A stretch of 64,000 bases of DNA, taken from assembly GCF_030867385.1 (NCBI RefSeq), contig NZ_JAPFBJ010000001.1, forward strand, positions 682,001 through 746,000, given 5' to 3'. Position 1 is the first letter of the stretch. Each line of letters starts with the position of its first letter. Shown here piece after piece: positions 10,256 through 28,662 of this stretch. The position numbers and the translations under genes were made by a program. The stretch comes from Sphingobium sp. DEHP117. Lineage in GTDB: Bacteria > Pseudomonadota > Alphaproteobacteria > Sphingomonadales > Sphingomonadaceae. A model generated the notes under the pieces. It saw nothing but the letters and a program-made list of their open reading frames with translations. It made no database searches and was not told the DNA's origin.

Positions 10256-10271
10256 TGGTGCCCAGAAGAGG
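10256..10271. repeat. att site, distal copy
   Basis: TGGTGCCCAGAAGAGG, identical to 28576-28591, where it forms the 3' acceptor end of tRNA-Leu. Flanking bases differ on both sides (G/C before, C/A after), which fixes the core at 16 bp. It lies 197 bp upstream of the integrase start. Confidence 0.85.
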
Positions 10272-10389
10272 CGTAAAAATTCTGTCTCAGGCAATGCCGA
10301 GGCATCCCTAACCACACTGTAATTTTGCCGATTTGGCTTGTAAGGTGTTCGCGGTCGGTCGCCCACATTTGCCTGAAATCCCACCGATT

Positions 10390-10407
10390 TGTGGGAACGA
10401 ATGTGGG
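10390..10407. repeat. candidate integrase arm site, left
   Basis: TGTGGGAACGAATGTGGG lies 119 bp inside the distal att copy. A copy with one mismatch, in the same orientation, lies at 28500-28517 near the other end. Paired sites near both ends of an element are what integrase or excisionase arm binding would need. This stretch lies in the 338-bp gap 10130-10467, which otherwise holds only the att core. Confidence 0.4.
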
Positions 10408-10467
10408 AGCATTTTCGGCAGCCATTCCGTGGGAACGGCAGCCGAAGATTCCCTAAACGGGACTCGA

Positions 10468-12456: not shown

Positions 12457-12672
12457 ATGGCCGAACCATGGGTAACCGCCGAAGCTGTGGCGAAACATTT
12501 GGGCGTGGTGAAAGACACCATCTATCGCTGGCGCGAATGTAGGAACCTGCCTGCGCACAAGGTCGGCCGCCTTTGGAAATTCCAGATATCCGAAGTGGAT
12601 GAATGGGTCAGGCTGGGTGGCGCAGACGACACCACCTCGAATGCAAATAATCAGGCCGGATCGGACCAATGA
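12457..12672 (+). CDS. HTH_17 excisionase-like DNA-binding protein, first gene of the R-M operon
   Basis: A 71-aa helix-turn-helix protein (WVTAEAVAKHLGVVKDTIYRW, then KVGRLWKFQISEVDEW), a MerR-like excisionase fold. Its stop overlaps the hsdR ATG (ATGA), so it leads the restriction operon. Small HTH genes in this position are common and may act as control proteins for restriction gene expression; that role is inferred. ATG 12457 is chosen over the upstream TTG 12427. Confidence 0.75.
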   Translation: MAEPWVTAEAVAKHLGVVKDTIYRWRECRNLPAHKVGRLWKFQISEVDEWVRLGGADDTTSNANNQAGSDQ

Positions 12673-15665
12673 CGACAGCCGAAAGCACAATCGAACGGGA
12701 ACTGATCTCCAAGCTCGAAGAGCTGAAATACGAGTATCGCTCAGACATCCGTGATCGTGCGGCGCTGGAGCTGAACTTTCGGCAGAAGTTTGAGGCGCTG
12801 AACCGCGTTCGCCTGACAGACAACGAGTTTCAGCGGCTACTGGAAAGCATCACTACGCCTGATGTGTTCGCAGCCGCAAATGTGTTGCGCGGATATAGCA
12901 GCTTTGAGCGCGACGATGGTACGCCGCTAAACTACACTTTGGTCAACATCAGGGACTGGTGCAAAAACACCTTCGAGGTAGTCAACCAGCTTCGCATCAA
13001 CACGGATAACAGCCATCACCGCTATGACGTGATTCTGCTCATTAACGGCGTGCCAGTTGTTCAGATCGAACTAAAGACTATGGCGGTCAGTCCGCGCCGT
13101 GCCATGCAGCAGATCGTCGATTACAAGGCCGATCCGGGAAACGGGTACGGCAAGACGCTGCTTTGCTTCCTGCAGATTTTCGTTGTCAGCAACCGTACCG
13201 ACACATGGTATTTCGCCAACAACAACGCCCGACAATTCAGTTTCAACGCGGACGAGCGCTTCCTGCCGATTTATCAATTCGCCAGCGAAGACAACAAGAA
13301 GATTACCCATCTCGACAGCTTCGCCGAGAAGTTCCTGGCGAAGTGCACGCTTGGCCAAATGGTCAGCCGCTACATGGTGCTGGTCGCCAGCGAACAGAAG
13401 CTGATGATGATGAGGCCCTACCAAATCTACGCCGTGAAGGCGATTGTGGAGTGCATCCACCAGAATTGTGGCAACGGCTATGTATGGCACACCACCGGCA
13501 GCGGAAAGACGCTGACATCCTTCAAGGCATCGACCTTGCTCAAGGACAACGATGACATTGCCAAATGCCTTTTCGTGGTGGACCGCAAGGACCTCGACCG
13601 GCAGACCCGCGAGGAGTTTAATCGTTTTCAGGAAGGCTGTGTCGAGGAAAACACCAACACCGAAGCCCTTGTACGCCGCCTGCTATCGGATGACCGGGCC
13701 GACAAGGTGATCGTTACCACCATTCAGAAACTTGGCTTGGCGCTCGACGATACCAATCGCCGACAGTCGGGCAAAAAGCAGACCTACAAGGAGCGGTTGG
13801 AATCGTTGCGTGACGAGCGCATCGCGATCATCTTCGACGAATGTCACCGCTCCCAGTTCGGGGACAATCACAAGGCCATCAAGGAATTTTTCCCGAAGGC
13901 CCAGCTTTTCGGTTTCACCGGCACGCCGATCTTCGAGCAGAACGCCAGCTATAGCCAGATTGAGGGCGAGCAGGGCAGCTATCGCACCACAGACGATCTG
14001 TTCCAGCGCAGTCTGCACCAGTACACGATTACCCACGCCATTGAGGACCGCAACGTGCTGCGGTTCCATATCGACTACTACAAGCCCGAGGGCGAAAAGC
14101 TGCCCAAACCGGGCGAAGCGCTCGCGAAAGAGAAGGTTATCGAGACCATTCTGGCGAAGCACAACGCTGCCACTGCCAACAGGAAGTTCAATGCTGTCCT
14201 GGCGACAAGCTCGATCAACGATGCCATCGACTACTATGAGAAATTCGCCAAGATTCAGGCGAAACGGCAGGCCACCGATCCTGAGTTCGAGCCGCTGAAG
14301 ATTGCCTGCGTCTTCTCGCCGCCCGCCGAAGGCAACAAGGATGTGCAGCAGATTCAGGAGGATCTGCCGCAGGAGAAGGCGGACAACGCACAGGACCCGG
14401 AGGCCAAGAAGACTGCGCTCAAGGCGATCATCAGTGATTACAATGATCGCTACGGCACCAACCATAAGATTGGCGAGTTCGATCTCTATTATCAGGACGT
14501 GCAAAAGCGCATCAAGGATCAGCAGTTCCCCAACGCCGACCTACCGCGCAAGGGCGCGGAGAAGATCGACATCGTCATCGTGGTGGACATGCTGTTGACC
14601 GGCTTCGATTCCAAGTTTCTGAACACGCTCTACGTGGACAAGAACTTGAAGCACCACGGGCTGATCCAGGCATTTTCGCGCACCAACCGTGTGCTGAACG
14701 ACACCAAGCCATACGGCAATATCCTCGATTTCCGTCAGCAGCAGGCGGCGGTGGAAGAGGCCATTGCCCTGTTCTCCGGCGAGAAGATCGACAACCCCCG
14801 GCAAATCTGGCTCGTCGATCCTGCGCCAAAGGTCATCGAGAGCCTGCAAAACGCCATGCAGACGCTTGGCGAATTCATGGAATCGCAGGGTCTGTCCAAC
14901 ACCCCGGAGGACGTGCCGAACCTGAAGGGCGATGCCGCGCGCGGGCAGTTCATTACCTTGTTCAAGGAAGTACAGCGGCTGAAAACCCAGCTCGATCAGT
15001 ACACCGATCTGAGCGAGGAGCAGGCCGATGTCATTAGCCAGACTGTGCCGACAGACGCCATGCAAGGCTTCCGCAGCATGTACCTGGAGACAGCAAAGCG
15101 GCTCAAGGAGAAGCAGGATAAGCCTGGCGGGGCAGACGATCCGGTAGTGGACCAGCTCGACTTCGAGTTCGTGCTCTTCCACTCAGCCGTGATCGATTAT
15201 GATTATATCATGGGCCTGATTGCCCGCTACACGCAAAACCTGCCAGGCAAGCTGAAAATGAGCCGCGAGCAGCTCATCGGCCTGATTCAGTCCGATGCCA
15301 AGTTCATCGACGAGCGGGACGACATCGCCGAGTATATTCGCGGCCTGTCTGCCGATCAGCCTTTGGACGAAAAGGAAATCCGCGCCGGTTACGAACGATT
15401 CAAGGCCGCGAAGAAGGTGCAGGCGCTGACAGCTATTGCCGACAAGCACGGCGTGGGCGCAGCTGCGCTGCAAGACTTTGTCGATGTCGTGTTGCGACGT
15501 CGGATTTTCGATGGTGATGGCCTGAGCGAGCTGATGGCACCACTGGAGCTTGGTTGGAAGGCACGCACGCAAGCCGAGCTGGCGCTGATGGAAGACCTTG
15601 CGCCCTTGCTCCACAAGCTGGCCCAGGGCCGCGAGATTTCCGGGCTGAGTGCGTATGAACAGTAA
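12669..15665 (+). CDS. hsdR: type I restriction enzyme R subunit
   Basis: Motor and nuclease subunit of a type I restriction-modification complex, 998 aa. The N-terminal PD-(D/E)xK nuclease is visible as D120 in HHRYDVILL and the ELK triad at 134-136. The SF2 translocase follows, with Walker A TTGSGKT (275-281), DECH box (390-393) and FGFTGTPIF (motif III). The C terminus carries the helical region that docks on the methylase core. It overlaps the HTH gene upstream and hsdS downstream. Full length and apparently intact. Confidence 0.95.
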   Translation: MTTAESTIERELISKLEELKYEYRSDIRDRAALELNFRQKFEALNRVRLTDNEFQRLLESITTPDVFAAANVLRGYSSFERDDGTPLNYTLVNIRDWCKNTFEVVNQLRINTDNSHHRYDVILLINGVPVVQIELKTMAVSPRRAMQQIVDYKADPGNGYGKTLLCFLQIFVVSNRTDTWYFANNNARQFSFNADERFLPIYQFASEDNKKITHLDSFAEKFLAKCTLGQMVSRYMVLVASEQKLMMMRPYQIYAVKAIVECIHQNCGNGYVWHTTGSGKTLTSFKASTLLKDNDDIAKCLFVVDRKDLDRQTREEFNRFQEGCVEENTNTEALVRRLLSDDRADKVIVTTIQKLGLALDDTNRRQSGKKQTYKERLESLRDERIAIIFDECHRSQFGDNHKAIKEFFPKAQLFGFTGTPIFEQNASYSQIEGEQGSYRTTDDLFQRSLHQYTITHAIEDRNVLRFHIDYYKPEGEKLPKPGEALAKEKVIETILAKHNAATANRKFNAVLATSSINDAIDYYEKFAKIQAKRQATDPEFEPLKIACVFSPPAEGNKDVQQIQEDLPQEKADNAQDPEAKKTALKAIISDYNDRYGTNHKIGEFDLYYQDVQKRIKDQQFPNADLPRKGAEKIDIVIVVDMLLTGFDSKFLNTLYVDKNLKHHGLIQAFSRTNRVLNDTKPYGNILDFRQQQAAVEEAIALFSGEKIDNPRQIWLVDPAPKVIESLQNAMQTLGEFMESQGLSNTPEDVPNLKGDAARGQFITLFKEVQRLKTQLDQYTDLSEEQADVISQTVPTDAMQGFRSMYLETAKRLKEKQDKPGGADDPVVDQLDFEFVLFHSAVIDYDYIMGLIARYTQNLPGKLKMSREQLIGLIQSDAKFIDERDDIAEYIRGLSADQPLDEKEIRAGYERFKAAKKVQALTAIADKHGVGAAALQDFVDVVLRRRIFDGDGLSELMAPLELGWKARTQAELALMEDLAPLLHKLAQGREISGLSAYEQ

Positions 15666-16287
15666 CGACGTGAGCGCAGAGGCGGGCAAAGGCATCCCGA
15701 AATTGCGGTTCCCGGAGTTTCTGGGGCAACCGCTACATAACGTTCAACTTGGCGATGTGACCGACGAGGCATCGACCCGGAATGGCGGCAAACTCGCAGC
15801 TGCGTCAGTCATGGGAGTCCGGAAGGAAGGCGGTATCGTTCCGATGGAGGAACGATTGGTTGCGGGAGATATCTCCCGCTACAAGCTCGTCCGCAACGAT
15901 TGGTTTGCTTACAATCCGATGCGCCTGAACATCGGTTCGATAGCGCGATGGCAGGGCGATGACGAGATTCTCGTTAGCCCGGATTACGTTGTGTTTCGTT
16001 GCTCGTCGCGAGCCGAACCGACGCCAATTATTCCGGAATATCTCGACCATTTCCGCAGCTCCCGACAGTGGGACGCATTCACAAATGAGTCCGGCGACGG
16101 CGGGGTGCGCATTCGCATCTACTACCGCGACCTTGCGCGAATGCGGTTGCTGTTGCCCAGCGCCATCGAGCAGCACAAGATCGCTGATTGCCTGTCATCA
16201 ATCGATGCGCTGATTGCTGCCGAAGCGGACAAGCTAGCCCGGCTTATTCATCGGGCTTGGTCAGAAGGGTTGGCGGGAGTGGTGTAA
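15655..16287 (+). pseudogene. hsdS: hsdS 5' part, interrupted by IS1380
   Basis: First half of the type I specificity subunit: the N-terminal PKLRFPEF start and the first target-recognition domain. It runs to the conserved spacer EQHKIADCLSSIDALIAAEADKL. At 16238 the IS begins, and the frame adds the IS-encoded tail ARLIHRAWSEGLAGVV before a stop at 16287. ATG 15655 overlaps the hsdR end by 11 bp. Joining 15655-16237 to 17889-18604 gives exactly 433 codons including stop, with the junction reading EADKLEALKKHKRGLMQQ, a normal HsdS central region. The half could still be expressed as a one-TRD protein. Confidence 0.88.
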
Positions 16288-17884
16288 GCGATTGCTTTCA
16301 TGTAGGAAAATGGGTGTCTAGACCAGTCCTGCAGCGAGGCAATTTATGCCACGGGCCACACCCGCCGGGAGCGATGATAGCGCGCCGGGATTTTCGTTTC
16401 CAGCGATCGGGCGCAAGAAGATCACAGCCGCGTTCGACGGAGGTCGGCTCACCTCGGATGGCGGTGTTCTGCTGCTGGCACAGGCCGAGCGCGCGATGGG
16501 GCTTTGCCGGCGGCTTGCGGCTTGCATTGCCGATCCGCGGGACCCTGTGCGGGTGATCCATCGCCTTGATGACATCCTGCGTGCCCGGGTGTTCGCGATC
16601 GCCTGCGGCTATGAAGACGCCGATGATCTCGACGCTCTGCGCGACGATCCGGGCTTCCGCCTGGCGCTGGGCAAGCTGCCGGGATCGGGCGCGGGGCTGG
16701 CCAGCCAACCGACGATGAGCCGGTGGGAAAATGCGCCGACCACACGCGAGCTGGCCAGGATGATGGCCGCGATGATCGACATCTACTGCACCAGCTACCC
16801 CGCCGCGCCGGCGGCGGTGACGCTGGATATCGATGACACCTGTGACGTTGTTCATGGCTATCAGCAGCTCTCCTTCTGGAACGGGCATCATGGCGAGCGC
16901 TGCTTCCTGCCGATCCATGTCTACGACACTGCCACCGGCCGACCGGTGGCGATGCTGCTGCGCACCGGCAAGACACCGTCGGGCGCCGAAGCTGCCGGCC
17001 ACATCCGGCGCCTGGTGCGCCATCTGCGCCGGCACTGGCCCGAAACGCACATCACCATCCGCGGCGACGGGCACTATGGCCGGCCCGAGGTCATGGCCTT
17101 CTGCGAGGCGGCCGGCGTCGACTACGTGTTCGGCCTGCCGACCAACGCCGCGCTGCGTGCTGATCCCGAAATCGTCGCTGCCGCCGATGCCTGCGCGGTT
17201 AAGCGGGCTCAGCGCCAATATCCGGTCCTGCGCAACTATGCCGAGACCCGCTACGGCGCGAAGAGCTGGAAGTGCCAGCGCCGCGTCGTCGCCCGGATCG
17301 AGGCCAGCACGCTGGGCATGGACATCCGCTATGTCGTCACCTCGCTGGCCGAAGGTTCGGCTGAGCATATCTACGACACCCTCTACTGCGCGCGCGGCAA
17401 CGCCGAGAACCTGATCAAGCGCCACAAGACCCAGCTTGCCAGCGATCGTACCTCGTGCCGCTCAGCCAATGCTAACCAGATGCGCCTCATCCTGCACACC
17501 GCCGCCTACTGGCTCGTGTGGCGCATCCAGCAGGAAATCCCGAAGGCTGCCGCGCTCGCCACCGCCGAGTTCGCAACGCTGCGCCTGCGGTTGCTCAAGG
17601 TCGCCGCCCGCATCATCGAAACCGCTACGCGCATCCGCGTCGCCTTCGCGTCAGCCTGTCCCGATGCCAGCCTGTTCAGAACCATTGCCACCGGCCTCCG
17701 GCCGGCACCCACATAACCAGCGCGGCAGTGCCGCCCAAAGCCCGAGCCCTCGTCCTTCAACCTCGAAAAGCCCATCGATCCTGACGCGGTGAAAAAACCG
17801 CCGGAGGAGCTTGCTCTGATCACCCGGCGACCGACAAACCATGCTCGCACGAACCCGGAGCGGAGGCCTCATGAATAGTGCGGG
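16238..17884 (+). mobile_element. IS1380-family insertion sequence, copy 1
   Basis: A 1647-bp element with imperfect terminal inverted repeats (CCCGGCTTATTCAT at the left; CCCGCACTATTCAT read inward from the right). It is flanked by the 4-bp target duplication CTAG at 16234-16237 and 17885-17888. It splits hsdS. A copy of the same length lies at 57887-59533 in opposite orientation. The one difference I noticed is the base in CTTTCATG here versus CTTTGATG there (near 16298). Confidence 0.93.
16346..17716 (+). CDS. IS1380-family DDE transposase
   Basis: A 456-aa transposase. Candidate acidic residues are in VTLDIDDTCD, TIRGDGHYGR and ARGNAENLIKRHK, matching the DDE order of IS1380 enzymes. The N-terminal segment FDGGRLTSDGG is typical of the family. 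It is intact and identical in sequence to the protein of copy 2, so both copies may still be mobile. Confidence 0.93.
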   Translation: MPRATPAGSDDSAPGFSFPAIGRKKITAAFDGGRLTSDGGVLLLAQAERAMGLCRRLAACIADPRDPVRVIHRLDDILRARVFAIACGYEDADDLDALRDDPGFRLALGKLPGSGAGLASQPTMSRWENAPTTRELARMMAAMIDIYCTSYPAAPAAVTLDIDDTCDVVHGYQQLSFWNGHHGERCFLPIHVYDTATGRPVAMLLRTGKTPSGAEAAGHIRRLVRHLRRHWPETHITIRGDGHYGRPEVMAFCEAAGVDYVFGLPTNAALRADPEIVAAADACAVKRAQRQYPVLRNYAETRYGAKSWKCQRRVVARIEASTLGMDIRYVVTSLAEGSAEHIYDTLYCARGNAENLIKRHKTQLASDRTSCRSANANQMRLILHTAAYWLVWRIQQEIPKAAALATAEFATLRLRLLKVAARIIETATRIRVAFASACPDASLFRTIATGLRPAPT

Positions 17885-17888
17885 CTAG

Positions 17889-18604
17889 AGGCGCTCAAGA
17901 AACATAAACGGGGCTTGATGCAGCAGTTTTTCCCCGCCCCCGGCGAAACCACCCCTCGTCTGCGATTTCCGGAGTTTCAAGGCGCGGGAGATTGGGAAGA
18001 ACAGGCCCTTGGGAACTTGTTAGAATTTCCTCCCAACTATGGTGCTAATGCACCCTCTGCGCCTTATAGTCCTGATCTTCCGACCTATCTACGCATTACT
18101 GACATTTCCGAGGACGGTCGCTTCATTCGCGAAAGTAGGATGTCCGTGGAGGTTGAGGCGACGCCAGACAATTCCATGCAAGCTGGGGACATCGCGCTGA
18201 CTCGAACTGGCGCGAGCGTAGGAAAGTCGTATCTTCACAAAGAGGCCGAAGGGCCACTTGTTTTTGCGGGATTCTTAATCAGAATCCGCCCAAATTCGAA
18301 TTTAATAATTCCTGAATTCGTTTCTCAATTCTTCAATTCATACAGGTATTGGTCATGGGTTGAAAAAACGTCCACTCGCAGCGGGCAGCCAGGTCTAAAT
18401 AGCACGGAATTCTCAGCATTGCTGATCCCATTACCGAAAAACAATCAAGGCAAGGGTATCCAGGAGCAGAGAAGGATTGCAGACAGCCTATCTTCCATCG
18501 ATGCGCTCATCGTTTCTCAGAGCGATAGGATCAACGCGATCAAGACCCACAAACAGGGCCTCATGCACCAGCTCTTCCCCGTCGCGAGCGAGGTGCAGGT
18601 GTGA
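17889..18604 (+). pseudogene. hsdS: hsdS 3' part after the IS
   Basis: Second half of the specificity subunit: the end of the central spacer (EALKKHKRGLMQQFFP), a repeat of the PRLRFPEF motif, the second target-recognition domain, and the C-terminal spacer copy (RRIADSLSSIDALI ... KTHKQGLMHQLFP). Without the first half it could initiate at ATG 17918 (TTG 17915) and yield a protein of about 229 aa with one TRD and one spacer. Its stop overlaps the start of the PrrC-like gene (GTGA). Confidence 0.85.
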
Positions 18605-19683
18605 GCAAGCCTCGCCAATACACTTACAAATCAGTGAAAAAGGTGGTGCAGCGACTCCGTGATGACCTCAACGGAGGTGGGCAGCAGTTTGTGCTGCTTT
18701 ATGCCTATAACGGTATAGGCAAGACCCGCATTTCCATGGGCTTTAAGGATAAGGGAAAGCAGGGCGATGCGCGCGACACGCTGTATTTCAATGCCTACAC
18801 CGAGGACCTGTTTCTCTGGGACAACGACCTCGACAACGACGTTGTCCGCACTATCAAATTCAATGAAAAGTCGCGGTTCTTTGCGGGCATAAAAGACCTG
18901 GCGCTTGAAGAGAGCATTCAGAAGTATCTCGGCCGATATGCTGATTTTGATTTTGACATAGACTATGCCAACTGGACGATCTCGTTCAGCAAGGGCGGCA
19001 ATAACCACATCAAGGTGTCGCGCGGCGAGGAGAACATCTTCATATGGTGCCTGTTCATGGCGATATGCGAACGCGTGATCGACAAGCACCCGTCGTATGC
19101 TTGGGTCAAATACCTATATATCGACGATCCGATCTCATCGCTTGACGACAACAATGCCATTGCGGTCGCCTGCGATCTCGCGAAGCTGCTCAAGCGAGAG
19201 GAGAACGAGCTCAAGGTCGTTTTCTCGTCGCACCACGCCCTGTTTTTTAACGTTGTATGCAACGAACTGAAAAAGAAGCCGCACAAGAAATATTTCCTGC
19301 ATCGCCCCAACCGGGGTGAAACCTTTGTGCTTCAGGCGACAGACGACACGCCATTCTTTCACCATGTTGCAATGTTGGATGACATTCGCAACGCCGCCAA
19401 TTCGGGTGCGCTGTACACCTATCACTTCAACAAGTTACGGAGCATTCTGGAAAAGACAGCGATCTTTTTCGGGCACAACGATTTTTCCGCATGCATTCAT
19501 GGCGTTGATGATGAAGCGCTTTATGCGCGTGCCCTGAACCTGCTCAGCCATGGCGAATATGCCATCTTCGAACCCCGAGAGATGGGGGACGACAACAAAC
19601 AGCTCTTCCGCCAGATTCTGGATGCTTTCCTTGCCCGATACCAGTTTGCCTTGCCAGAGCTTCTGGCCCGGCCCGCGACATAA
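18601..19683 (+). CDS. PrrC-like anticodon nuclease candidate in the hsd operon
   Basis: A 360-aa ABC-type ATPase with a distinct C-terminal domain. N-domain motifs are Walker A AYNGIGKT (35-42), signature VSRGEEN (139-145), Walker B YLYIDDPISSLDD (171-183) and a switch His in SSHH (211-212). The C-terminal domain has Arg280-x3-Glu284 in LRSILEKT and His317 in NLLSHGEY. Escherichia coli PrrC uses an Arg-x3-Glu...His triad (R320, E324, H356) to cut tRNA-Lys, and it also sits in a type I hsd locus. Spacing here is 4 and 37, against 4 and 36. Nuclease function is therefore a strong inference, not shown. A generic AAA ATPase is the alternative. GTG start overlaps the hsdS stop. Confidence 0.72.
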   Translation: MSKPRQYTYKSVKKVVQRLRDDLNGGGQQFVLLYAYNGIGKTRISMGFKDKGKQGDARDTLYFNAYTEDLFLWDNDLDNDVVRTIKFNEKSRFFAGIKDLALEESIQKYLGRYADFDFDIDYANWTISFSKGGNNHIKVSRGEENIFIWCLFMAICERVIDKHPSYAWVKYLYIDDPISSLDDNNAIAVACDLAKLLKREENELKVVFSSHHALFFNVVCNELKKKPHKKYFLHRPNRGETFVLQATDDTPFFHHVAMLDDIRNAANSGALYTYHFNKLRSILEKTAIFFGHNDFSACIHGVDDEALYARALNLLSHGEYAIFEPREMGDDNKQLFRQILDAFLARYQFALPELLARPAT

Positions 19684-19694
19684 ATGAGTAGACC

Positions 19695-21320
19695 ATGACC
19701 GACCAAGAGCAGAAGCAACTCGGCAAGACCCTTTGGGCCATCGCCGACACCTTGCGCGGGGCGATGAATGCGGACGATTTCCGCGATTACATGCTGGCAT
19801 TCCTGTTCCTGCGCTATCTGTCAGACAACTACGAGATCGCCGCCGCCAAGGAACTCGGATCGGACTACCCCAAGCTTAAGCTTGAAGACAAGCGCGCGCC
19901 GTTGTCGCTTTGGTACGCGGAAAATCCCGAGGACACCGAGGCCTTTGAAAAGCAGATGCGCCGCAAGGTGCATTACGTCATCCGCCCGGAATATCTGTGG
20001 ACCAGCATCGCGGAACTGGCGCGCAAGCAGGACATCGAACTGCTCGACACCCTCCAGAAAGGACTGGAGTATATCGAGACGGAATCCTTCGCCAGCACGT
20101 TCCGGGGCCTGTTTTCGGAAATCAATTTAGCGTCGGACAAACTGGGCAAGATCTATGCTGAGCGCAATGCCACCTTGTGCAAGATCATCACCGAGATCGC
20201 CAAGGGGCTGAAGGAGTTTTCAACCGACAGCGATACGCTGGGCGATGCCTATGAATATCTGATTGGCCAGTTTGCCGCCGGGTCCGGAAAGAAAGCGGGG
20301 GAGTTTTACACCCCGCAGTTTGTGTCAGACATCCTTTCGCAGATCGTGTCACTTGACGGGCAGGAGCCGAAGAGCGGCCAGCGCGCTCACATGGATAGCC
20401 TGATGGATTTCGCCTGCGGGTCCGGCTCGCTCTTGCTCAATGTGCGCCACCGCATGGGCGCGCACGGGATCGGCAAGATTTTCGGACAGGAAAAGAACAT
20501 CACCACTTACAACCTGGCGCGCATGAACATGTTGCTGCACGGGGTGAAGGATACCGAGTTCGAGATTTTCCATGGCGACACGCTGACCAACGACTGGGAC
20601 ATCCTGCGCGAAACGAACCCTGCCAAGATGCCGCGTTTCGATGCCGTGGTTGCCAACCCGCCGTTCAGCTATCGCTGGGACCCCAGTGAAGCGCTGAGCG
20701 AGGACGTGCGGTTCAAGAACTACGGTCTTGCGCCAAAGTCCGCCGCCGACTTCGCGTTTCTGCTGCATGGCTTCCATTACCTCAAGGACGATGGGGTGAT
20801 GGCCATCATCCTTCCGCACGGCGTGCTTTTCCGTGGCGGCAAGGAAGCGGAAATCCGCAAGAAGCTGCTCAAGGACGGGCATATCGATACCGTGATCGGT
20901 TTGCCCGCGAACCTGTTCTACTCCACCGGCATCCCGGTGTGCATCCTGGTGCTGAAGAAGTGCAAGAAGCCCGATGACGTGCTGTTCATCAATGCAGCGG
21001 AACATTTCGAGAAGGGCAAACGGCAGAATTACCTTGGCGACGGGAAGGACGGCAAACCGGACCACATCGGCAAGATTATCTCGACCTATCAGCACAGGAC
21101 TGAAGAGCCGCGGTATTCTCGCTGCGTCTCGATGGAAGAGATCGAGAGCAACGACTTCAATCTCAACATCTCCCGGTACATCAGCACGGCGACGGCGGAC
21201 GAGGAGATCGACTTAGGCGCGGTTCACGAGAAGCTGACGGCACTTGAGGGCGAAATTGCTGTAGCAAGAGAGCAGCACAACGCCTTCCTGAAGGAACTGG
21301 GCCTGCCGCCATTGCCATGA
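19695..21320 (+). CDS. hsdM: type I DNA methyltransferase M subunit
   Basis: N6-adenine methyltransferase subunit of the type I complex, 541 aa. An N-terminal helical HsdM_N domain (1-150) precedes the methylase core with AGEFYTPQFV (201-210), SAM motif I FACGSGSLLLN (239-249) and catalytic motif IV NPPF (321-324). The C-terminal helices would contact HsdS. It starts 11 bp after the PrrC-like gene and ends the operon. The methylase is intact, but with hsdS split its target specificity is in doubt. Confidence 0.95.
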   Translation: MTDQEQKQLGKTLWAIADTLRGAMNADDFRDYMLAFLFLRYLSDNYEIAAAKELGSDYPKLKLEDKRAPLSLWYAENPEDTEAFEKQMRRKVHYVIRPEYLWTSIAELARKQDIELLDTLQKGLEYIETESFASTFRGLFSEINLASDKLGKIYAERNATLCKIITEIAKGLKEFSTDSDTLGDAYEYLIGQFAAGSGKKAGEFYTPQFVSDILSQIVSLDGQEPKSGQRAHMDSLMDFACGSGSLLLNVRHRMGAHGIGKIFGQEKNITTYNLARMNMLLHGVKDTEFEIFHGDTLTNDWDILRETNPAKMPRFDAVVANPPFSYRWDPSEALSEDVRFKNYGLAPKSAADFAFLLHGFHYLKDDGVMAIILPHGVLFRGGKEAEIRKKLLKDGHIDTVIGLPANLFYSTGIPVCILVLKKCKKPDDVLFINAAEHFEKGKRQNYLGDGKDGKPDHIGKIISTYQHRTEEPRYSRCVSMEEIESNDFNLNISRYISTATADEEIDLGAVHEKLTALEGEIAVAREQHNAFLKELGLPPLP

Positions 21321-21499: not shown

Positions 21500-23365
21500 A
21501 TGAGTCGTTTCGTTCGGCTAGCTTTGACGCTTCTTTCGCTTTTTACTTTGCTCGGGGTGCCTGCATCCGCGCAATTTCCCGGGCCTAGCCCATTCATCCC
21601 TCCACTTAATCAAATCGCTGTGGATCCCAACTGGGGGCCGATTTGCGCTGGAATACCTGAGCCGGGTTTTGGACCAGCTCCTTGCAACATGGTTCAACAG
21701 GAATTGTCCGTACGACAAAAAATGGGAGCTATCCTACCCGGGCTGCAACAAATCGGCTTCAATGTCGGGATCGGGCCAATATGCGCCGGTCCCCTCGGTC
21801 CAGGACCTTGCATTCAAGTCGCGCGGTGGATCGCAATGCAGCAGGTCGCGCAGCAACAGTTACCGCCGCTTACTCCGATTGCCAATATACCGGGTGTCGG
21901 CCCGATATGTGCTGGTCCCCTAGGTCCCGGCCCATGTGAAGCGGTGAGGGTCTATCTGGCGCAAGCCACGTTTGGTGCACCGGCTCCTTTTAGCCTTTCG
22001 GACGTTCATGTCTCAGGGTCTGCTGGCAATTTTGGTCCCATCTGCAACGGACCATTCGGGGCCACGCCTTGCTCATTGGTTGGCCAGCTGGGGTTAGATG
22101 GAATCGGGTCTGGGTCAATTCCCGGGCAGGCATCCTTTAATCTTCCACAGCTGTCTGGCCCGGCGTCCCTTGCGGCTGCATGCGCAAGTAGGAGCGGATT
22201 AAACATTGGGAGTTTCGTTGGCTGCACTGGACAGCAAGTGATATTGCCTGAAAAGCAGCAGGCTATTCTGGATTGTGCAGTTTCAAACCATAATACCGAA
22301 GATTTTGGGAAATGCGCTGCTCCACTCACGGGGATTACTCTTTCTGACAATCAGCGTAAGTTGGCTAATTGTGCCATGAATGCGGGCGGAGATTCCGCGG
22401 TTTTCGCGGGCTGCGTCGGCATATCGTCTCTCGGAGCCAATGAGCAGGCAATTTTAAATTGTGCGGCGCAATCTTCTGGCTCCTCTCAATCTTTCGCCAC
22501 TTGCGCGGGGGCACGCTTTCTTAAAGCTCAAGAACGAGAGGTCATTGAATGCGCGATAAGCGCGTCTGACGCCAAGGCATTTGCGGCGTGCGCTACTTCA
22601 AACTCATCGTTGAAAATGTCTGATGAACAGAGAGTTCTGGCGCGCTGTGCAGTTTCGAGTAACGGCGACGAAAGTCAGTTCCTATCGTGCGCTGGATCGG
22701 CGTTCGTATCGAATGGTTTAGGCAACAACGAGAAGGCTGTGTTGGCCTGTGCAACGACCTCTCAAGGCAGCTCGTCGAAGTTCGCAGAGTGCGCGGCAAA
22801 CAAGTTGGTGGGTGGGAGCCTGAGTAAAGAACAACAGGTCGCAATACGCTGCGCGGCGGAGTCTGGCGGCGATGTTGGAACGTTTGGGGGCTGTGCTGCG
22901 GCCAATATGTTTAGCCTTCAACTCAACCCGGAGCAGCAGATTGCGGTGCAATGTGTCGTATCCACCGGGGGCGAGCCAACGACCGCCGCTGGATGCATAG
23001 CTTCGCGGTTGACGTTGCGCGAACTTACCAAATGTCTCAGTGACGGAATCGGCGGGAACGGATGTTTCGGTGATTCCAATGATTTGGTTGGTAAAAATGG
23101 GTTTGTCGCAAGGACATTTGGCCAAATTGCGGGAGGTCCGAACTCCGTGATAAATAACCCAAACCAGATATGGGGCGGTGACAACTCGTTTGTACGCAAT
23201 CCCGGTCAAATATGGGGAGGGCCAAATTCATTCTTCAACAACCCAGGTCAAATTTTTGGAGGACCAAACTCAGTTTTTAACAATCCTGGCCAGCTCTTGC
23301 CTAGCCCCAAGCCGGTACAAGTCGGTAGCATAGGCGGAAAGCGGATTTGTCTTCCTTGGTGCTAA
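21500..23365 (+). CDS. secreted protein with three families of internal repeats, Cys-rich (unknown)
   Basis: A 621-aa exported protein of no family I recognise. A signal peptide (MSRFVRLALTLLSLFTLL, cleavage near ASAQ, residue 24) is followed by three repeat zones. Zone A, residues 45-195, has four copies of GPIC(A/N)G...G(P/A)xPC. Zone B, residues 225-500, has nine units of about 32 aa, each with two Cys 13 or 14 residues apart (228/242, 259/272, 291/305, 321/335, 351/364, 383/397, 417/431, 451/465, 485/499) and a preceding LxxxEQxxL segment. Zone C, residues 545-600, has four 14-aa units like GGPNSFFNNPGQIF. The paired Cys suggest disulfide-locked helical hairpins outside the cytoplasm. Base composition is less GC-rich than the neighbouring hsd genes. 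The gap 21321-21499 upstream holds its likely promoter. The papain-like gene follows after 11 bp. Confidence 0.82.
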   Translation: MSRFVRLALTLLSLFTLLGVPASAQFPGPSPFIPPLNQIAVDPNWGPICAGIPEPGFGPAPCNMVQQELSVRQKMGAILPGLQQIGFNVGIGPICAGPLGPGPCIQVARWIAMQQVAQQQLPPLTPIANIPGVGPICAGPLGPGPCEAVRVYLAQATFGAPAPFSLSDVHVSGSAGNFGPICNGPFGATPCSLVGQLGLDGIGSGSIPGQASFNLPQLSGPASLAAACASRSGLNIGSFVGCTGQQVILPEKQQAILDCAVSNHNTEDFGKCAAPLTGITLSDNQRKLANCAMNAGGDSAVFAGCVGISSLGANEQAILNCAAQSSGSSQSFATCAGARFLKAQEREVIECAISASDAKAFAACATSNSSLKMSDEQRVLARCAVSSNGDESQFLSCAGSAFVSNGLGNNEKAVLACATTSQGSSSKFAECAANKLVGGSLSKEQQVAIRCAAESGGDVGTFGGCAAANMFSLQLNPEQQIAVQCVVSTGGEPTTAAGCIASRLTLRELTKCLSDGIGGNGCFGDSNDLVGKNGFVARTFGQIAGGPNSVINNPNQIWGGDNSFVRNPGQIWGGPNSFFNNPGQIFGGPNSVFNNPGQLLPSPKPVQVGSIGGKRICLPWC

Positions 23366-23376
23366 GGAGCTATTTT

Positions 23377-23967
23377 ATGCGCCGTGCAGCAATATCAATC
23401 GTTGGCATTGGCTATTTTGTTCTCTCGAACCCGGTCCTCGCCCACGAAAAGGATCTACGAACAATGACCGATTCCAGCGGAGAAACTGAAGTAGCGTTCT
23501 GTTACAGGCCCAGCCCAAATTCCTTTGGGCTTCCTGGGCATGCATTTGTTGCCTTTAGCGCACGCAATCCTGCGGGGGTACGTGATTTCCGCGCGGTCGG
23601 ACATACGGTCGCAAGCGGCGCCTCGAGTGTCTCAGCAGCATTCTCCTATTTCGGCGGCGGGAGTGTGTCAGGCGCTCAGATGGAGGAGCGGTACACATCG
23701 ATCAAGCAAGCATGCTTAACGGTGAAGGTGGATCGAGCCGTATTTCAAAACGCGGTGTCGGCAGCTCAGCCGACGCTCTCAAAACTCGGATTTCCCGCGA
23801 CAGTAGCCTCGTCAATGGAGCGTTACTCCTTAGGATCAAACGATTGCATAACTTTCGCGGAAAAAGTTGCAACGGCAATCAAGCCTGCTGGGTTGACTGT
23901 ACCTAGTCGATCCTCAATCGACACCCCATCGTCATGGATCAATAAGTTGATCGCCTCAAACCCATAA
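23377..23967 (+). CDS. exported protein with permuted papain/NlpC-P60-like motifs
   Basis: A 196-aa protein with a signal peptide (cleavage near VLAHE, residue 22). It has His55 in LPGHAFVAFS and Cys157 in GSNDCITFAEKVA. A His motif before a Cys motif is the order seen in circularly permuted papain-fold (NlpC/P60, LRAT/YiiX-like) hydrolases, so a cysteine peptidase, amidase or acyltransferase is plausible. That is inference from motif order only. AAGGAG at 23364-23369 lies 7 nt before ATG 23377. It is coupled to the Cys-repeat gene and probably acts with it outside the cytoplasm. Confidence 0.7.
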   Translation: MRRAAISIVGIGYFVLSNPVLAHEKDLRTMTDSSGETEVAFCYRPSPNSFGLPGHAFVAFSARNPAGVRDFRAVGHTVASGASSVSAAFSYFGGGSVSGAQMEERYTSIKQACLTVKVDRAVFQNAVSAAQPTLSKLGFPATVASSMERYSLGSNDCITFAEKVATAIKPAGLTVPSRSSIDTPSSWINKLIASNP

Positions 23968-24696: not shown

Positions 24697-24730
24697 GGGA
24701 GGGCGCGCTTATACGTCGTGCCGACGTCGC
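24697..24730 (+). other. candidate oriT with Ti/RSF1010-like nic region
   Basis: The traC-traA gap (24585-24756) contains GGGAGGGCGCGCTTATACG from 24697, which resembles the nic region of Ti-plasmid/RSF1010-type oriTs (core AGGGCGC..TTATACGTCG, from memory). Next to it is a perfect 6-bp inverted repeat, ACGTCG (24713-24718) and CGACGT (24722-24727), with a 3-nt loop. MOBQ relaxases recognise exactly this arrangement of hairpin plus nick site. The exact nick position is not determined. Confidence 0.65.
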
Positions 24731-24756
24731 GCTCATGGCGTAGATGGATTGCCGTC

Positions 24757-27642
24757 ATGGCGATCTTCCACCTCTCCGTCAAAGTCATCAGCCGGTCGAG
24801 CGGGCGCAGCGCTGTTGCTGCCGCCGCCTATCGCGGGGCCGAGCGGCTGCACGACGAACGGCTCGACCGCGACCATGACTTCACCAACAAGGACGGGGTT
24901 GTCCATTCCGAAGTGCTGTTGCCGGAAGGCGCGCCGGAGGAATTTGCCGACCGCGAGAAGCTCTGGAACGCGGTCGAGGCTGCCGAGAAGCGCAAGGACG
25001 CACAGCTTGCCCGCGAGGTCGAATTCGCCATTCCGCGCGAGCTGACCAAGGAACAGGGCATCGAGCTGGCGCGCGAATTTGCAGAGGCCGAGTTCGTCGA
25101 GAAGGGCATGATCGCCGACCTCAATGTCCATTGGGATATTGGCGCAGACGGCCAGCCCAAGCCCCATGCTCATGTCATGCTCACCATGCGCGAAGTCGGG
25201 AAAGATGGGTTCGGCGCGAAGGTGCGTGAGTGGAATAAGGCCGAACTGGTCGAGCAGTGGCGCGAGCGCTGGGCCGATCATGTCAACCAGCGCCTTGCCG
25301 AGCTCGATATCGACGCGCGGATCGATCACCGCAGCCTGGCGGCGCAGGGCATTGCTTTGGAGCCGCAGGACAAGATCGGTCCCGCCGCATCGCGCATGGG
25401 CGTGCGCGGGCTTGAGGCCGAGCGGATCGAGGAACATCGCGCCGTCGCACAGCGCAATGGCGAGCGAATTATCGCCAATCCCGCTGTCGCCCTCGACGCG
25501 ATCACGCACAGTCAGGCCACTTTCACGAACCGCGACCTTGCCATGTTCGTGCACCGGCACAGCGACGGCAAGGAACAGTTCGATTTGGCGATGGGCGCAG
25601 TGCGCGGATCATCAGACCTTATCGCGCTGGGCAAGGACAGTCGCGGCGAAGAGCGATTCACATCGCGGCTGATGATCGACACCGAGCAGCGGCTTGGCCG
25701 CGCATCGGAATTGCTCGCGGAGCGCGAGCGGCATGGGGTCGAAGGCTCAGGCCGGGAAGGAGCACTGGCGCGCGCTGCGGAACGTGGGCTTGCGCTTTCC
25801 GGCGAGCAACGCGCAGCATTCGAGCATGTGACCGATGGGCGCGGCCTCTGCGTCGTTGTCGGCTATGCCGGGACCGGCAAAAGCGCGATGCTGGGCGTTG
25901 CCCGCGAGGCTTGGGAAAACGCTGGCTATACCGTTCGCGGTGCGGCGCTGTCCGGGATTGCCGCCGAGGGGCTGGAGCACGGTTCGGGCATTGCCTCGCG
26001 CACCATCGCCAGCCTTGAACATCAGTGGGGCCAAGGCCGCGAATTGCTCACGTCGCGCGATGTTCTTGTCATCGATGAGGCTGGCATGGTCGGCACGCGC
26101 CAGATGGAGCGCGTGCTGTCCCATGCCGCCGATGCGGGCGCGAAAGTTGTCCTGGTTGGCGACCCGCAGCAGCTTCAGGCCATCGAAGCGGGAGCTGCCT
26201 TCCGTGCGATCCATGAACGGCATGGCTGCGTCGAAATCAGCGAGGTTCGCCGCCAGCACGAAGGCTGGCAGCAGGATGCCACCCGCCATCTTGCCACCGG
26301 GCGCACAGGCCTTGCCATTCAGGCCTATGGCGAACGCGGCATGATCCACGCCGCCGACACCCGGGAAGCTGCACGCCACGAGCTGATCGAGCGCTGGGAC
26401 CGCGACCGGCAGGCCAGCCCCGGCGCTAGGGGGATCATTCTCACCCACACCAATGACGAGGTGCGCGAACTCAATGAGGCAGCGCGCGGAAAGCTGCGCG
26501 CCAGTGGCGAGCTGGGCGACGACGTGACCATCCGCGCCGAGCGCGGCGAGCGCCAGTTCGCCAGCGGCGACCGCATCATGTTCCTGCGCAATGAGCGGGG
26601 CCTGGGCGTAAAAAATGGCACACTCGGCACCGTGGAGCAGGTGTCGCCGCAGCGCATGGCCGTGCACACCGACGATGGCCGCAGTGTCGCCTTCGATACC
26701 AAGGACTATGCGCACATCGACCATGGCTACGTGGCCACGATCCACAAGGCGCAGGGTATGACCGTGGACCGGGCGCATGTGCTGGCGACGCCGGGCATGG
26801 ACAGCCACAGTGCCTATGTGGCGATGTCTCGCCACCGTGACGGCCTTGCCCTGCACTATGGGCGCGACGACTTCGCCGATCAGTCCAGACTTGTCCGCAC
26901 GCTCAGCCGCGAGCGCGGCAAGGACATGGCGAGCGACTACAAGCCAGAGCAGCAGTTCGCAGAACGGCGCGGGATCACCTTCCGCGAGCGCATTGTCGAG
27001 ATTGCACGGCAGTTGCCGGAGAGAGCGAAGTCCATCTTCGCCGGATTCCGTCCGCAGGCCAACCGGCTCGAACCCCTGCCGACCGATCAGGCTGCCCTGT
27101 CCGACCAGCGCCGGGCGGTCGAGCGCTATCTACGTGCTGCCAACGACATCGGGCAGATGCGCGAACAGGGATTGCCCGTCCTGCCACACCAGCGCGACGC
27201 GCTGGAGAAGGCCGGGAAGGCGCTCGATGCGATCCGGCCCCATGGCGCAACCGACCTCGCCAGCGCCTTGCAGCGCCAACCCTCGCTCGCCCGTGAGGCC
27301 GCCGATGGTCGCAGCCAAGGTGCAATCCGAGCCATGCAGCTTGAGGGCGAAATCCGCGTCGATCCCGCGCAGCGCGCCGACCGCTTCGTCAGCGACTGGC
27401 AGCGGCTGGGGCAAGCACGGCAAGCCATGCAGCGCGATGGCGACAGCAAGGGCGCGCAGAGGCTCACTAATCGCATGACGGACATGGCGAAGAGCCTGGA
27501 GCGTGACGCGCAGGTCGAATCCCTGTTGCGCGGTCGCACCCGCGAGCTGGGCATCAAGACAGAACTCGGTCGCGATCTGGCCCGCGACCTTGCCGCCTCC
27601 ATCACGATGGAGCGGAGCCGGTCAATCGGCATGGGCCTGTAG
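24757..27642 (+). CDS. traA: Ti-type conjugative relaxase-helicase TraA
   Basis: A 961-aa bifunctional relaxase. The N-terminal MobA/MobL domain has AVAAAAYRGAERL (candidate nicking Tyr25) and the metal-binding HxH in KPHAHVMLT (about 137-139). A TraI-like SF1 helicase follows, with Walker A GYAGTGKSA (369-377), VLVIDEAGMV, LVGDPQQLQAIEAG and the late motif TIHKAQGMTVDRAHV. It would nick oriT and unwind the transferred strand. ATG 24757 gives the canonical start MAIFHLSVKVISRSSGRSAV. No traG or mating-pore genes follow, so a helper element is needed. Confidence 0.93.
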   Translation: MAIFHLSVKVISRSSGRSAVAAAAYRGAERLHDERLDRDHDFTNKDGVVHSEVLLPEGAPEEFADREKLWNAVEAAEKRKDAQLAREVEFAIPRELTKEQGIELAREFAEAEFVEKGMIADLNVHWDIGADGQPKPHAHVMLTMREVGKDGFGAKVREWNKAELVEQWRERWADHVNQRLAELDIDARIDHRSLAAQGIALEPQDKIGPAASRMGVRGLEAERIEEHRAVAQRNGERIIANPAVALDAITHSQATFTNRDLAMFVHRHSDGKEQFDLAMGAVRGSSDLIALGKDSRGEERFTSRLMIDTEQRLGRASELLAERERHGVEGSGREGALARAAERGLALSGEQRAAFEHVTDGRGLCVVVGYAGTGKSAMLGVAREAWENAGYTVRGAALSGIAAEGLEHGSGIASRTIASLEHQWGQGRELLTSRDVLVIDEAGMVGTRQMERVLSHAADAGAKVVLVGDPQQLQAIEAGAAFRAIHERHGCVEISEVRRQHEGWQQDATRHLATGRTGLAIQAYGERGMIHAADTREAARHELIERWDRDRQASPGARGIILTHTNDEVRELNEAARGKLRASGELGDDVTIRAERGERQFASGDRIMFLRNERGLGVKNGTLGTVEQVSPQRMAVHTDDGRSVAFDTKDYAHIDHGYVATIHKAQGMTVDRAHVLATPGMDSHSAYVAMSRHRDGLALHYGRDDFADQSRLVRTLSRERGKDMASDYKPEQQFAERRGITFRERIVEIARQLPERAKSIFAGFRPQANRLEPLPTDQAALSDQRRAVERYLRAANDIGQMREQGLPVLPHQRDALEKAGKALDAIRPHGATDLASALQRQPSLAREAADGRSQGAIRAMQLEGEIRVDPAQRADRFVSDWQRLGQARQAMQRDGDSKGAQRLTNRMTDMAKSLERDAQVESLLRGRTRELGIKTELGRDLARDLAASITMERSRSIGMGL

Positions 27643-28575: not shown

Positions 28576-28591
28576 TGGTGCCCAGAAGAGG
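28576..28591. repeat. att site, tRNA-side copy
   Basis: TGGTGCCCAGAAGAGG, the reverse complement of the tRNA-Leu 3' end including CCA. It is identical to 10256-10271. Insertion here leaves the tRNA intact. Confidence 0.85.
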
Positions 28592-28662
28592 ACTCGAACC
28601 TCCACGCCCTTGCGAGCGCCAGCACCTGAAGCTGGTGCGTCTACCAATTCCGCCATCTGGGC
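28576..28662 (-). tRNA. tRNA-Leu(CAG)
   Basis: 87 nt including an encoded CCA. The acceptor stem GCCCAGA pairs with TCTGGGC. The anticodon stem-loop reads CCAGC-TTCAGGT-GCTGG, giving anticodon CAG. A long variable arm (GCGCTCGCAAGGGCGT) marks it as a class II leucine tRNA, and the T-loop GGTTCGAGTCC is present. Its 3' end is the attachment site of the element to its left. Confidence 0.95.

What the first reader, a model, noticed from the sequence alone, without database searches (positions are those of the whole stretch)
21500..23967. Secreted Cys-repeat protein paired with a permuted papain-like enzyme, carried as cargo on a mobilisable element
The first gene encodes an exported 621-aa protein with three separate repeat families: four GPIC(A/N)G..PC units, nine ~32-aa units with Cys pairs 13-14 apart, and four 14-aa GGPNSxxxNPGQ units. 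The second, 11 bp on, encodes an exported 196-aa protein with His55 then Cys157 in permuted papain order. I know no named system with this pair. A disulfide-locked solenoid partnered with a cysteine hydrolase could be an effector, a surface-processing system or a defence/competition device. The presence of the genes and repeats is seen; the joint function is inferred.
Basis: partly seen in the sequence, partly recalled or inferred. Interest (0 to 1): 0.8.

Follow-up and report, generated by a model that had tools for sequence, protein, structure and literature searches.

The report
Exported Cys-repeat protein with swappable hydrolases
A mobile DNA element carries two neighbouring genes for exported proteins, a so far unnamed cysteine-rich repeat protein and an enzyme that may cut membrane lipids; relatives suggest that the repeat protein stays while the enzyme beside it is exchanged, which could be a new kind of envelope weapon or defence cassette.

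Summary
Window 21500-23365 encodes a 621-aa exported-looking protein with 30 Cys and three repeat families; 23377-23967 encodes an exported-looking 196-aa protein with His55 and Cys157 invariant in 10 of 10 relatives. Neither matches Pfam, NCBIfam, PADLOC or PHROGs. The enzyme model aligns with TseH, a permuted NlpC/P60 effector (Z 10.7, next row 4.7), a group with lipid-acting members. The pairing is real but not obligate. The repeat protein ('core') occurs in scattered Alpha-, Beta- and Gammaproteobacteria. The enzyme family was found beside 8 of 31 cores; it is strong in 7 of 26 core genomes, adjacent each time, against 1 of 831 genomes sampled otherwise. In two Sphingomonas genomes the pair alone lies between icd and a kefB-like gene; these flanks are 70-183 bp apart in three relatives. 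Two sister cores (72% identical) carry different papain-like neighbours, one permuted and one not. Some core loci lie beside Gabija, type I RM with PrrC, E1-E2 or Ssp genes. Best reading: a constant exported holder or scaffold with an exchangeable envelope hydrolase, used in conflict with phages or competitors. Anatomy and association are shown; function is inferred. The repeat protein's fold was not resolved.

The parts
21500..23365 (+). Exported-looking Cys-repeat protein ('core', P0001), 621 aa: signal-like N-terminus; four GPIC-type units about 31-204; nine Cys-pair units about 221-505; LTxRELTKC..GCFG block about 503-528; four 14-aa GGxNS units from 545; C-terminal RICLPWC
   Evidence: relatives aligned; purifying selection; secondary structure only from a low-confidence model
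23377..23967 (+). Exported-looking permuted NlpC/P60-like cysteine hydrolase (P0002), 196 aa; invariant His55, Tyr150, Cys157
   Evidence: AF2 model; VIA-align Z 10.7 to 6v98 TseH
23364..23369 (+). Shine-Dalgarno-like AAGGAG of the second gene, overlapping the stop codon (23363-23365) of the first
   Evidence: Sequence printed
10256..10271 (+). attL-like 16-bp direct repeat
28576..28591 (+). attR-like 16-bp direct repeat inside tRNA-Leu(CAG) 28576-28662 (-)
10333..11679 (+). Integrase-like gene of the element (name recalled from sequence)
24718..27642 (+). Relaxase-like gene of the element (name recalled from sequence)
12669..21320 (+). Type I restriction-modification locus next door: hsdR-like 12669-15665, hsdS-like 15649-16287 and 17915-18604 separated by a transposase-like gene 16346-17716, PrrC 18601-19683, hsdM-like 19695-21320; context, not part of the pair
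   Evidence: PrrC E 2.1e-136; Specificity_I and MTase_I among the neighbour hits (which does not name the member); hsdR and transposase names recalled

Best explanation
A two-gene exported cassette. The repeat protein is the constant part: it is exported, presumably oxidised by the host's disulfide machinery, and serves as holder, scaffold or carrier for a hydrolase encoded beside it. In the window the hydrolase is a permuted NlpC/P60 cysteine enzyme (His55/Tyr150/Cys157), most likely acting on acyl or amide bonds of membrane lipids or lipoproteins. The hydrolase slot is exchangeable, somewhat as toxin modules are in polymorphic toxin systems. Carriage on islands beside phage-defence genes suggests conflict at the envelope: damage either to a competitor that receives the enzyme, or to the cell's own envelope when an intruder triggers its release. 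Shown: both genes, repeats, conservation, tight operon, fold class of the enzyme, rarity plus association, insertion of the pair alone, one clear and one weaker case of neighbour exchange, defence-gene neighbours at some loci. Inferred: binding of the two proteins, substrate, trigger, delivery, and the conflict role.
For: Enzyme: His55, Tyr150, Cys157 invariant in 10 of 10 relatives; model pTM 0.71 aligns with TseH at Z 10.7, 141 residues, rmsd 4.3, next row 4.7. PMC12994826 (section 11 and passages) groups TseH, Tox-Act1, LRAT, YiiX and DUF4105 as permuted NlpC/P60; Tox-Act1 (His43, Cys151) is a phospholipase, and TseH was active in one of two lipid assays. Link: P0002 family strong in 7 of 26 core genomes, one copy and adjacent each time, against 1 of 831 genomes sampled otherwise; Fisher 8e-11. 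Unit: the pair alone lies between icd and a kefB-like gene in L011/L012, about 2.9 kb between flanks that are 70-183 bp apart in three relatives. Exchange: sister cores L015/L021 (support 100/100, 72% aa) have a permuted enzyme versus a papain-like C..H protein. Context: 269 versus 33 PADLOC models at E<=1e-10 in neighbours versus same-contig controls; Gabija, Vsr, E1-E2, SspB, PrrC. A gene with a weak Zn_dep_PLPC match (E 7.8e-4, under its cutoff) precedes the L016 core.
Against: No P0002 relative was found beside 23 of 31 cores, and for most of those no enzyme neighbour was recognised. P0002 relatives exist without a core beside them (L004/L075, L010). The mirror-tree correlation vanishes without the most distant pair (r 0.22, p 0.20). 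Neither protein is in PADLOC or PHROGs. The defence comparison used ordinary chromosome, not other islands, as control, counts models rather than genes, and the control also held strong hits (DpdF, PsyrT); of 12 neighbour proteins scanned singly, 4 (L013, L019, L020, L026) gave nothing. I recognised no defence gene beside the L011/L012 pair. No third 'immunity' gene and no secretion gene was recognised beside the window pair (by eye). Foldseek gave no significant hit for the enzyme; none of ten family members passes a Pfam cutoff (best Lnb_N, E 0.12).
Confidence: 0.4

Rival explanations
1. Enzyme plus inhibitor: the repeat protein is a periplasmic immunity or inhibitor protein that keeps the exported hydrolase off the producer's own envelope, and the hydrolase alone is the weapon.
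For: Only two genes were seen between the flanks in L011/L012; both look exported and lie in tight operons; TseH is published with a periplasmic immunity protein TsiH (PMC7721734 passages).
Against: The core mostly occurs without the enzyme and its last 260 residues are more conserved than the enzyme (64-77% against 32-61% identity among six paired loci). Distant cores have other N-terminal regions, e.g. weak SH3_3 matches in L027 and L029 (E 0.025 and 0.0013, under cutoff). Sister cores L015/L021 keep their sequence while the neighbour changes.
Confidence: 0.18
2. Cell-wall rather than lipid target: the cassette remodels or attacks peptidoglycan.
For: Other genes near cores include a CHAP protein (L006, E 7.9e-6), a C..H papain-like protein (L021, no Pfam match) and a GH25 gene on the other strand at L022 (E 1.3e-22); weak SH3_3 and LprI matches in distant cores; TseH is described as degrading peptidoglycan in PMC7721734 (passages).
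Against: The permuted order found here marks the group with hydrophobic pockets and reported lipid activities (PMC12994826; PMC3142127 passages and section 8); trypsin-like genes near L006 and L022 are not wall enzymes as far as known; the SH3_3 and LprI matches are under their cutoffs.
Confidence: 0.18
3. Secreted digestive or host-association protein with a helper hydrolase, carried on islands because it is niche-adaptive (many hits are soil or nodule bacteria).
For: Bradyrhizobium, Rhizobium, Sinorhizobium, Microvirga and Mesorhizobium are among the hits.
Against: Also in Sphingomonas, Pseudomonas, Pseudoxanthomonas, Methylophilus, Variovorax, Cupriavidus and a deep-sea Methylophaga. Mapped neighbours include phage-defence genes, but symbiosis and catabolic genes were not searched for.
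Confidence: 0.14
4. Two independent passengers of mobile elements with no joint function.
For: Most cores lack the enzyme; no co-divergence without L032.
Against: 7 of 26 versus 1 of 831; adjacency in all seven; two-gene insertion in L011/L012; the association is seen in two well-separated core clades (window group and L032).
Confidence: 0.08

Closest known systems
TseH (T6SS effector of Vibrio cholerae, PDB 6v98) and the permuted NlpC/P60 group (Tox-Act1, LRAT, YiiX, DUF4105/Lnb)
   Same: Fold (Z 10.7), His before Cys about 100 residues apart, small enzyme thought to act at the envelope
   Different: Own signal-like N-terminus; no T6SS gene recognised beside it (by eye); encoded with a Cys-repeat protein; no significant match to the Pfam families of this group
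Polymorphic toxin systems (start of the abstract of PMC3482391 seen in the listing; details recalled)
   Same: Constant exported part with an exchanged enzymatic part
   Different: Enzyme is usually a separate gene, not a C-terminal domain; the changing part of the core is N-terminal; no recognised immunity gene or secretion system
NlpI-MepS (helical-repeat lipoprotein with an NlpC/P60 enzyme; 8xup_B listed at Z 3.9)
   Same: Helical-repeat partner plus papain-like envelope hydrolase, as an analogy only
   Different: Z is at noise level; housekeeping function of NlpI is recalled; the enzyme here is permuted
Phage-defence islands (Gabija, type I RM with PrrC, E1-E2, Ssp)
   Same: Genomic neighbourhood at some loci
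   Different: Those act in the cytoplasm (recalled); this pair looks exported and is in no defence library used here

Membership tests
Permuted NlpC/P60 (papain-like) enzymes | Catalytic His precedes catalytic Cys in sequence | tested here: met
   His55 and Cys157 invariant in 10 of 10
Permuted NlpC/P60 (papain-like) enzymes | Signature tyrosine near the catalytic Cys | tested here: inconclusive
   Tyr150 invariant in 10 of 10, 7 before Cys157 as Tyr101/Cys108 in PPPDE1 (PMC3142127 section 8); its place in the active site is not shown
Permuted NlpC/P60 (papain-like) enzymes | Third polar residue of the triad | tested here: inconclusive
   No residue after His55 is clearly the equivalent; His76 is invariant in 7 of 7 but not in all 10. 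The paper says it may be dispensable in LRAT
Permuted NlpC/P60 (papain-like) enzymes | Common fold core | tested here: met
   VIA-align Z 10.7 to 6v98 over 141 residues; Foldseek alone not significant; model pLDDT 67.5
Permuted NlpC/P60 (papain-like) enzymes | Lipid (acyl) specificity, hydrophobic pocket | not testable with these tools
   Needs a structure or an assay
TseH family (Pfam DUF6695 according to PMC12994826) | Sequence match to the Pfam family | tested here: not met
   No Pfam hit for P0002 at E<=10; not among the families hit by ten members; presence of that model in this Pfam copy was not checked
T6SS effectors | Encoded beside or fused to T6SS delivery genes | tested here: inconclusive
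   None recognised by eye among called genes around the pair; no PAAR or VgrG search was run
Known anti-phage defence systems | Match to a PADLOC model | tested here: not met
   P0001 and P0002: 0 families at E<=0.001
Polymorphic toxin systems | Constant module with exchanged toxin module | tested here: inconclusive
   Neighbour exchange between L015 and L021; toxicity and immunity untested
CHCH (twin Cys helical hairpin) proteins | Match to CHCH profile | tested here: inconclusive
   One relative (L007) E 0.011, under cutoff; P0001 none

The most novel reading that the evidence does not exclude
A previously undescribed class of envelope-located conflict system in Proteobacteria: an exported, disulfide-rich repeat protein that arms and restrains interchangeable hydrolases (permuted NlpC/P60, canonical papain-like, perhaps trypsin-like and HExxH metallopeptidases) outside the cytoplasm, often carried beside defence genes and able to move as a bare two-gene unit. 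It would give phage defence or competition an extracytoplasmic effector arm.
Probability: 0.26. Interest if true: 0.88.

Novelty: new variant of a known kind. Interest (0 to 1): 0.6.

Why it matters
Most phage-defence genes in such islands act in the cytoplasm (recalled). A constant exported repeat protein with exchangeable hydrolases beside it, in bacteria from Sphingomonas to Pseudomonas, would extend conflict systems to the periplasm or cell surface. It also gives an unannotated protein family a testable role: does it hold, deliver or inhibit a lipid-cutting enzyme? The two-gene unit found alone between icd and a kefB-like gene suggests that the cassette is small enough to test whole in a laboratory strain.

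Tried and rejected
Rejected: (1) 'Obligate pair': no P0002 relative found beside 23 of 31 cores. The profile search covered these loci's genomes or plasmids except L027 (not held) and L039 (not asked), which were looked at by tblastn/blastp with P0002 alone; tblastn missed the distant relative at L032, which blastp found. (2) Co-divergence as proof of interaction: r 0.76 (p 0.03) rests on one distant pair. (3) Phage gene: no match in 50,697 phage records to the core's C-terminal 221 aa. Two IMG/VR contigs hold near-identical cores (L038, L039; 99.3% over 1521 bases), L038 beside umuDC-like genes (names recalled), so host DNA is likely. (4) A named family; PDB sequence searches gave only chance-level rows. 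(5) Fold of the repeat protein: low-confidence model, best VIA-align Z 4.4 among 636 chains; no evidence of a new fold. (6) The first gene caller (longest ORFs first) chose antisense ORFs in high-GC loci; it was replaced, which still missed some genes, so core and partner positions were taken from tblastn. (7) Left out of the 31 cores: L035 and L037 (35- and 29-residue matches), L036 (split between frames), L038 (near-copy of L039); also G222 and G326, found later and not followed. (8) M48 label: the L025 neighbour overlaps the core's stop and has HEVGH, but Pfam M48 is E 0.023, under cutoff, and my signal heuristic finds no signal from the listed starts. The L005 relative lies about 2 kb from its core on the other strand, so L016/L005 is a weaker case of exchange than L015/L021. 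(9) Only 12 of the 103 neighbour proteins were scanned singly against PADLOC, chosen on suspicion (2, 10). (10) Not in print, as far as searched: four repeat strings gave 0 papers; listings showed no title or abstract start that describes this pair. Weak P0002-like hits in G493, G162 and G714 were not counted as family members.
Full report
1. What is there. The window holds an 18.3-kb element between 16-bp repeats at 10256 and 28576, the right one inside a tRNA-Leu gene. It carries an integrase-like gene, a type I restriction locus whose specificity-like gene is in two parts around a transposase-like gene, a PrrC anticodon-nuclease gene (PADLOC E 2.1e-136), the two genes of the finding, and a relaxase-like gene (names other than PrrC recalled). 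Gene 1 (21500-23365) and gene 2 (23377-23967) are 11 bp apart, and the AAGGAG of gene 2 overlaps the stop of gene 1. Both genes look to be under purifying selection: between the window and L011, pN is 0.26 (gene 1) and 0.29 (gene 2) against pS of 0.81 and 0.75, which is saturated.

2. No named family. Pfam and NCBIfam at E<=10, PADLOC at E<=0.001 and PHROGs at E<=0.1 give nothing for either protein, and PDB sequence searches give chance rows. One of ten P0002 relatives touches Lnb_N (DUF4105) at E 0.12.

3. The enzyme. Ten relatives share His55, Tyr150 and Cys157 without exception. The AlphaFold2 model from seven sequences has pLDDT 67.5 and pTM 0.71. Foldseek alone gives nothing significant, but VIA-align places it on TseH (6v98) at Z 10.7 over 141 residues with rmsd 4.3; the next row has Z 4.7. 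TseH, Tox-Act1, LRAT, YiiX and DUF4105 form the permuted NlpC/P60 group (PMC12994826, section 11 and passages); PMC3142127 (passages and section 8) describes hydrophobic pockets in the permuted structures. TseH is described as degrading peptidoglycan in PMC7721734 (passages); in PMC12994826 it was active in one lipid assay and not in another. So the fold class is supported and the substrate is open. The His-Cys distance in the model was not measured.

4. The repeat protein family. A profile of its C-terminal part found 27 loci in 84,980 species genomes (pattern-limited, so a lower bound) and two viral-collection contigs; tblastn of the full protein found seven plasmid records. It is rare: 1 of 100 relatives, the own genome, and 3 of 385 class genomes, own included. 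The last repeats, the LTxRELTKC..GCFG block and the GGxNS units are the conserved part. N-terminal regions differ among distant members: weak SH3_3 in L027 and L029, weak LprI in L030, all under cutoff, and a trypsin-like stretch in L008 (my reading; no Pfam hit). A lax heuristic finds a signal-like N-terminus for 30 of 31 cores. The model is poor (pLDDT 57, pTM 0.29): four strand-helix units, then helical hairpins; no PDB chain above Z 4.4.

5. The pairing. Among 31 cores (window, L005-L009, L011-L034, L039), 8 have a P0002 relative next door: window, L011, L012, L013, L015 (upstream), L016, L017 and the distant L032; L011 and L012 are near-copies. In 26 core genomes, 7 have a strong P0002-family hit (E<=2.3e-58), one each and adjacent. 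Six of these seven are themselves rows of the profile, so their E-values are strong by construction; their presence was first seen with P0002 alone. Elsewhere strong hits occur in 1 of 831 genomes: 99 relatives (G012; searched with P0002 alone), 384 class genomes and 348 genomes of the family around L017's genome (profile); Fisher p 8e-11. The 26 genomes were chosen for having a core, the window is not counted, and two of the 831 (G222, G326) carry a core. P0002 relatives without a core beside them: G012, overlapping a 2348-aa protein, and two copies on an Undibacterium plasmid.

6. A two-gene unit. In L011 and L012 the pair alone sits between icd and a kefB-like gene (names recalled). All 81 genomes of a genus-level search matched the flanks. 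I fetched 16 of these sites: the pair is in none of the 16, while the L011 control is found (tblastn); in three (G861, G908, G880) the conserved flanks are 70-183 bp apart against about 2.9 kb in L011; others hold different genes, such as monooxygenase- or TonB-receptor-like ones (names recalled). No transposase or third gene was called between the flanks in L011.

7. Exchange of the neighbour. On the core tree L015 and L021 are sisters with support 100/100 (72% aa identity, nothing else shared in their flanks by blastn): L015 has the permuted enzyme upstream, L021 an exported-looking papain-like protein with Cys before His overlapping the core's stop (no Pfam match; motif reading mine), and no P0002 relative was found in the L021 genome. 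L016 and L005 are sisters at 100/99 (79%): L016 has the P0002 family; L005's plasmid has none, and its nearest exported-looking genes, on the other strand 0.8-2 kb away, are a lipoprotein-like gene and an HExxH protein (Pfam M48 E 0.09) whose relatives also lie beside L025. This second case is weaker. L006 has CHAP (E 7.9e-6) and Trypsin_2 (E 2.9e-5, just under its cutoff) genes upstream. The tree needs at least five changes for presence of the P0002 family. L018 and L019 have unrecognised exported-looking genes 14 and 24 bp downstream.

8. Neighbourhood. For 15 core loci, 103 neighbour proteins (130-1300 aa, within 6.5 kb, pair excluded) matched 269 PADLOC models at E<=1e-10; 113 proteins from 15 control stretches 42-131 kb away on the same contigs matched 33. 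These are counts of models, many redundant, and the control included strong hits too (DpdF, PsyrT). Hits mapped to a protein: Gabija GajA+GajB and Vsr (L016), GajA (L025), E1-E2 (L018), methyltransferase/DrmMII and PDC-M33A (L014), PrrC (window); outside that set SspB (L008) and Orf5/HEC-06 (L006), while L005, L030 and L039 gave weak matches only. Islands in general are rich in defence genes, so this does not prove a defence role.

9. Mechanism. Shown: genes, repeats, conservation, operon, fold class, association, two-gene insertion, one clear exchange, context. Inferred: binding, substrate, trigger, delivery, conflict role. Rivals: enzyme plus inhibitor (0.18), cell-wall target (0.18), niche or host function (0.14), unrelated passengers (0.08).

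10. Novelty. The enzyme is a divergent member of a known superfamily; the repeat protein family and the exchangeable two-gene arrangement are not described in anything I found. I rate it a new variant of a known kind, with a categorically new reading kept open at 0.26.

Noticed in passing
window 18601-19683: PrrC anticodon nuclease gene (PADLOC E 2.1e-136) inside the type I restriction locus, as in EcoprrI (recalled).
   Followed up: partly
window 15649-18604: The specificity-subunit-like gene is in two parts with a transposase-like gene 16346-17716 between them; described only.
   Followed up: no
L010 2481-7334 (Undibacterium plasmid): Two P0002-family enzymes flank an 878-aa protein and a small Cys-containing protein, with no core found: a different cassette around the same enzyme.
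   Followed up: partly
L075 2352-9954 (G012, same genus as the window): P0002 relative overlapping a 2348-aa protein, near a helicase-like gene (name recalled); the enzyme has another large neighbour there.
   Followed up: partly
L016 4729-7608: 959-aa protein with a weak Zn_dep_PLPC match (E 7.8e-4) directly upstream of the core and P0002 relative.
   Followed up: no
L005 12696-14676 and L025 9590-11676: Shared lipoprotein-like gene plus HExxH (M48-like) protein near two cores, in different orientation: possibly a second recurring neighbour set.
   Followed up: partly
L008, L026-L029, L033: Several distant cores end in an aromatic tail such as WRF or WRW, while the window group ends in RICLPWC; possible sorting or anchoring signal.
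   Followed up: no
icd to kefB-like interval, L077-L092: A site in the genus of L011 that is nearly empty in some genomes and holds different genes in others.
   Followed up: partly
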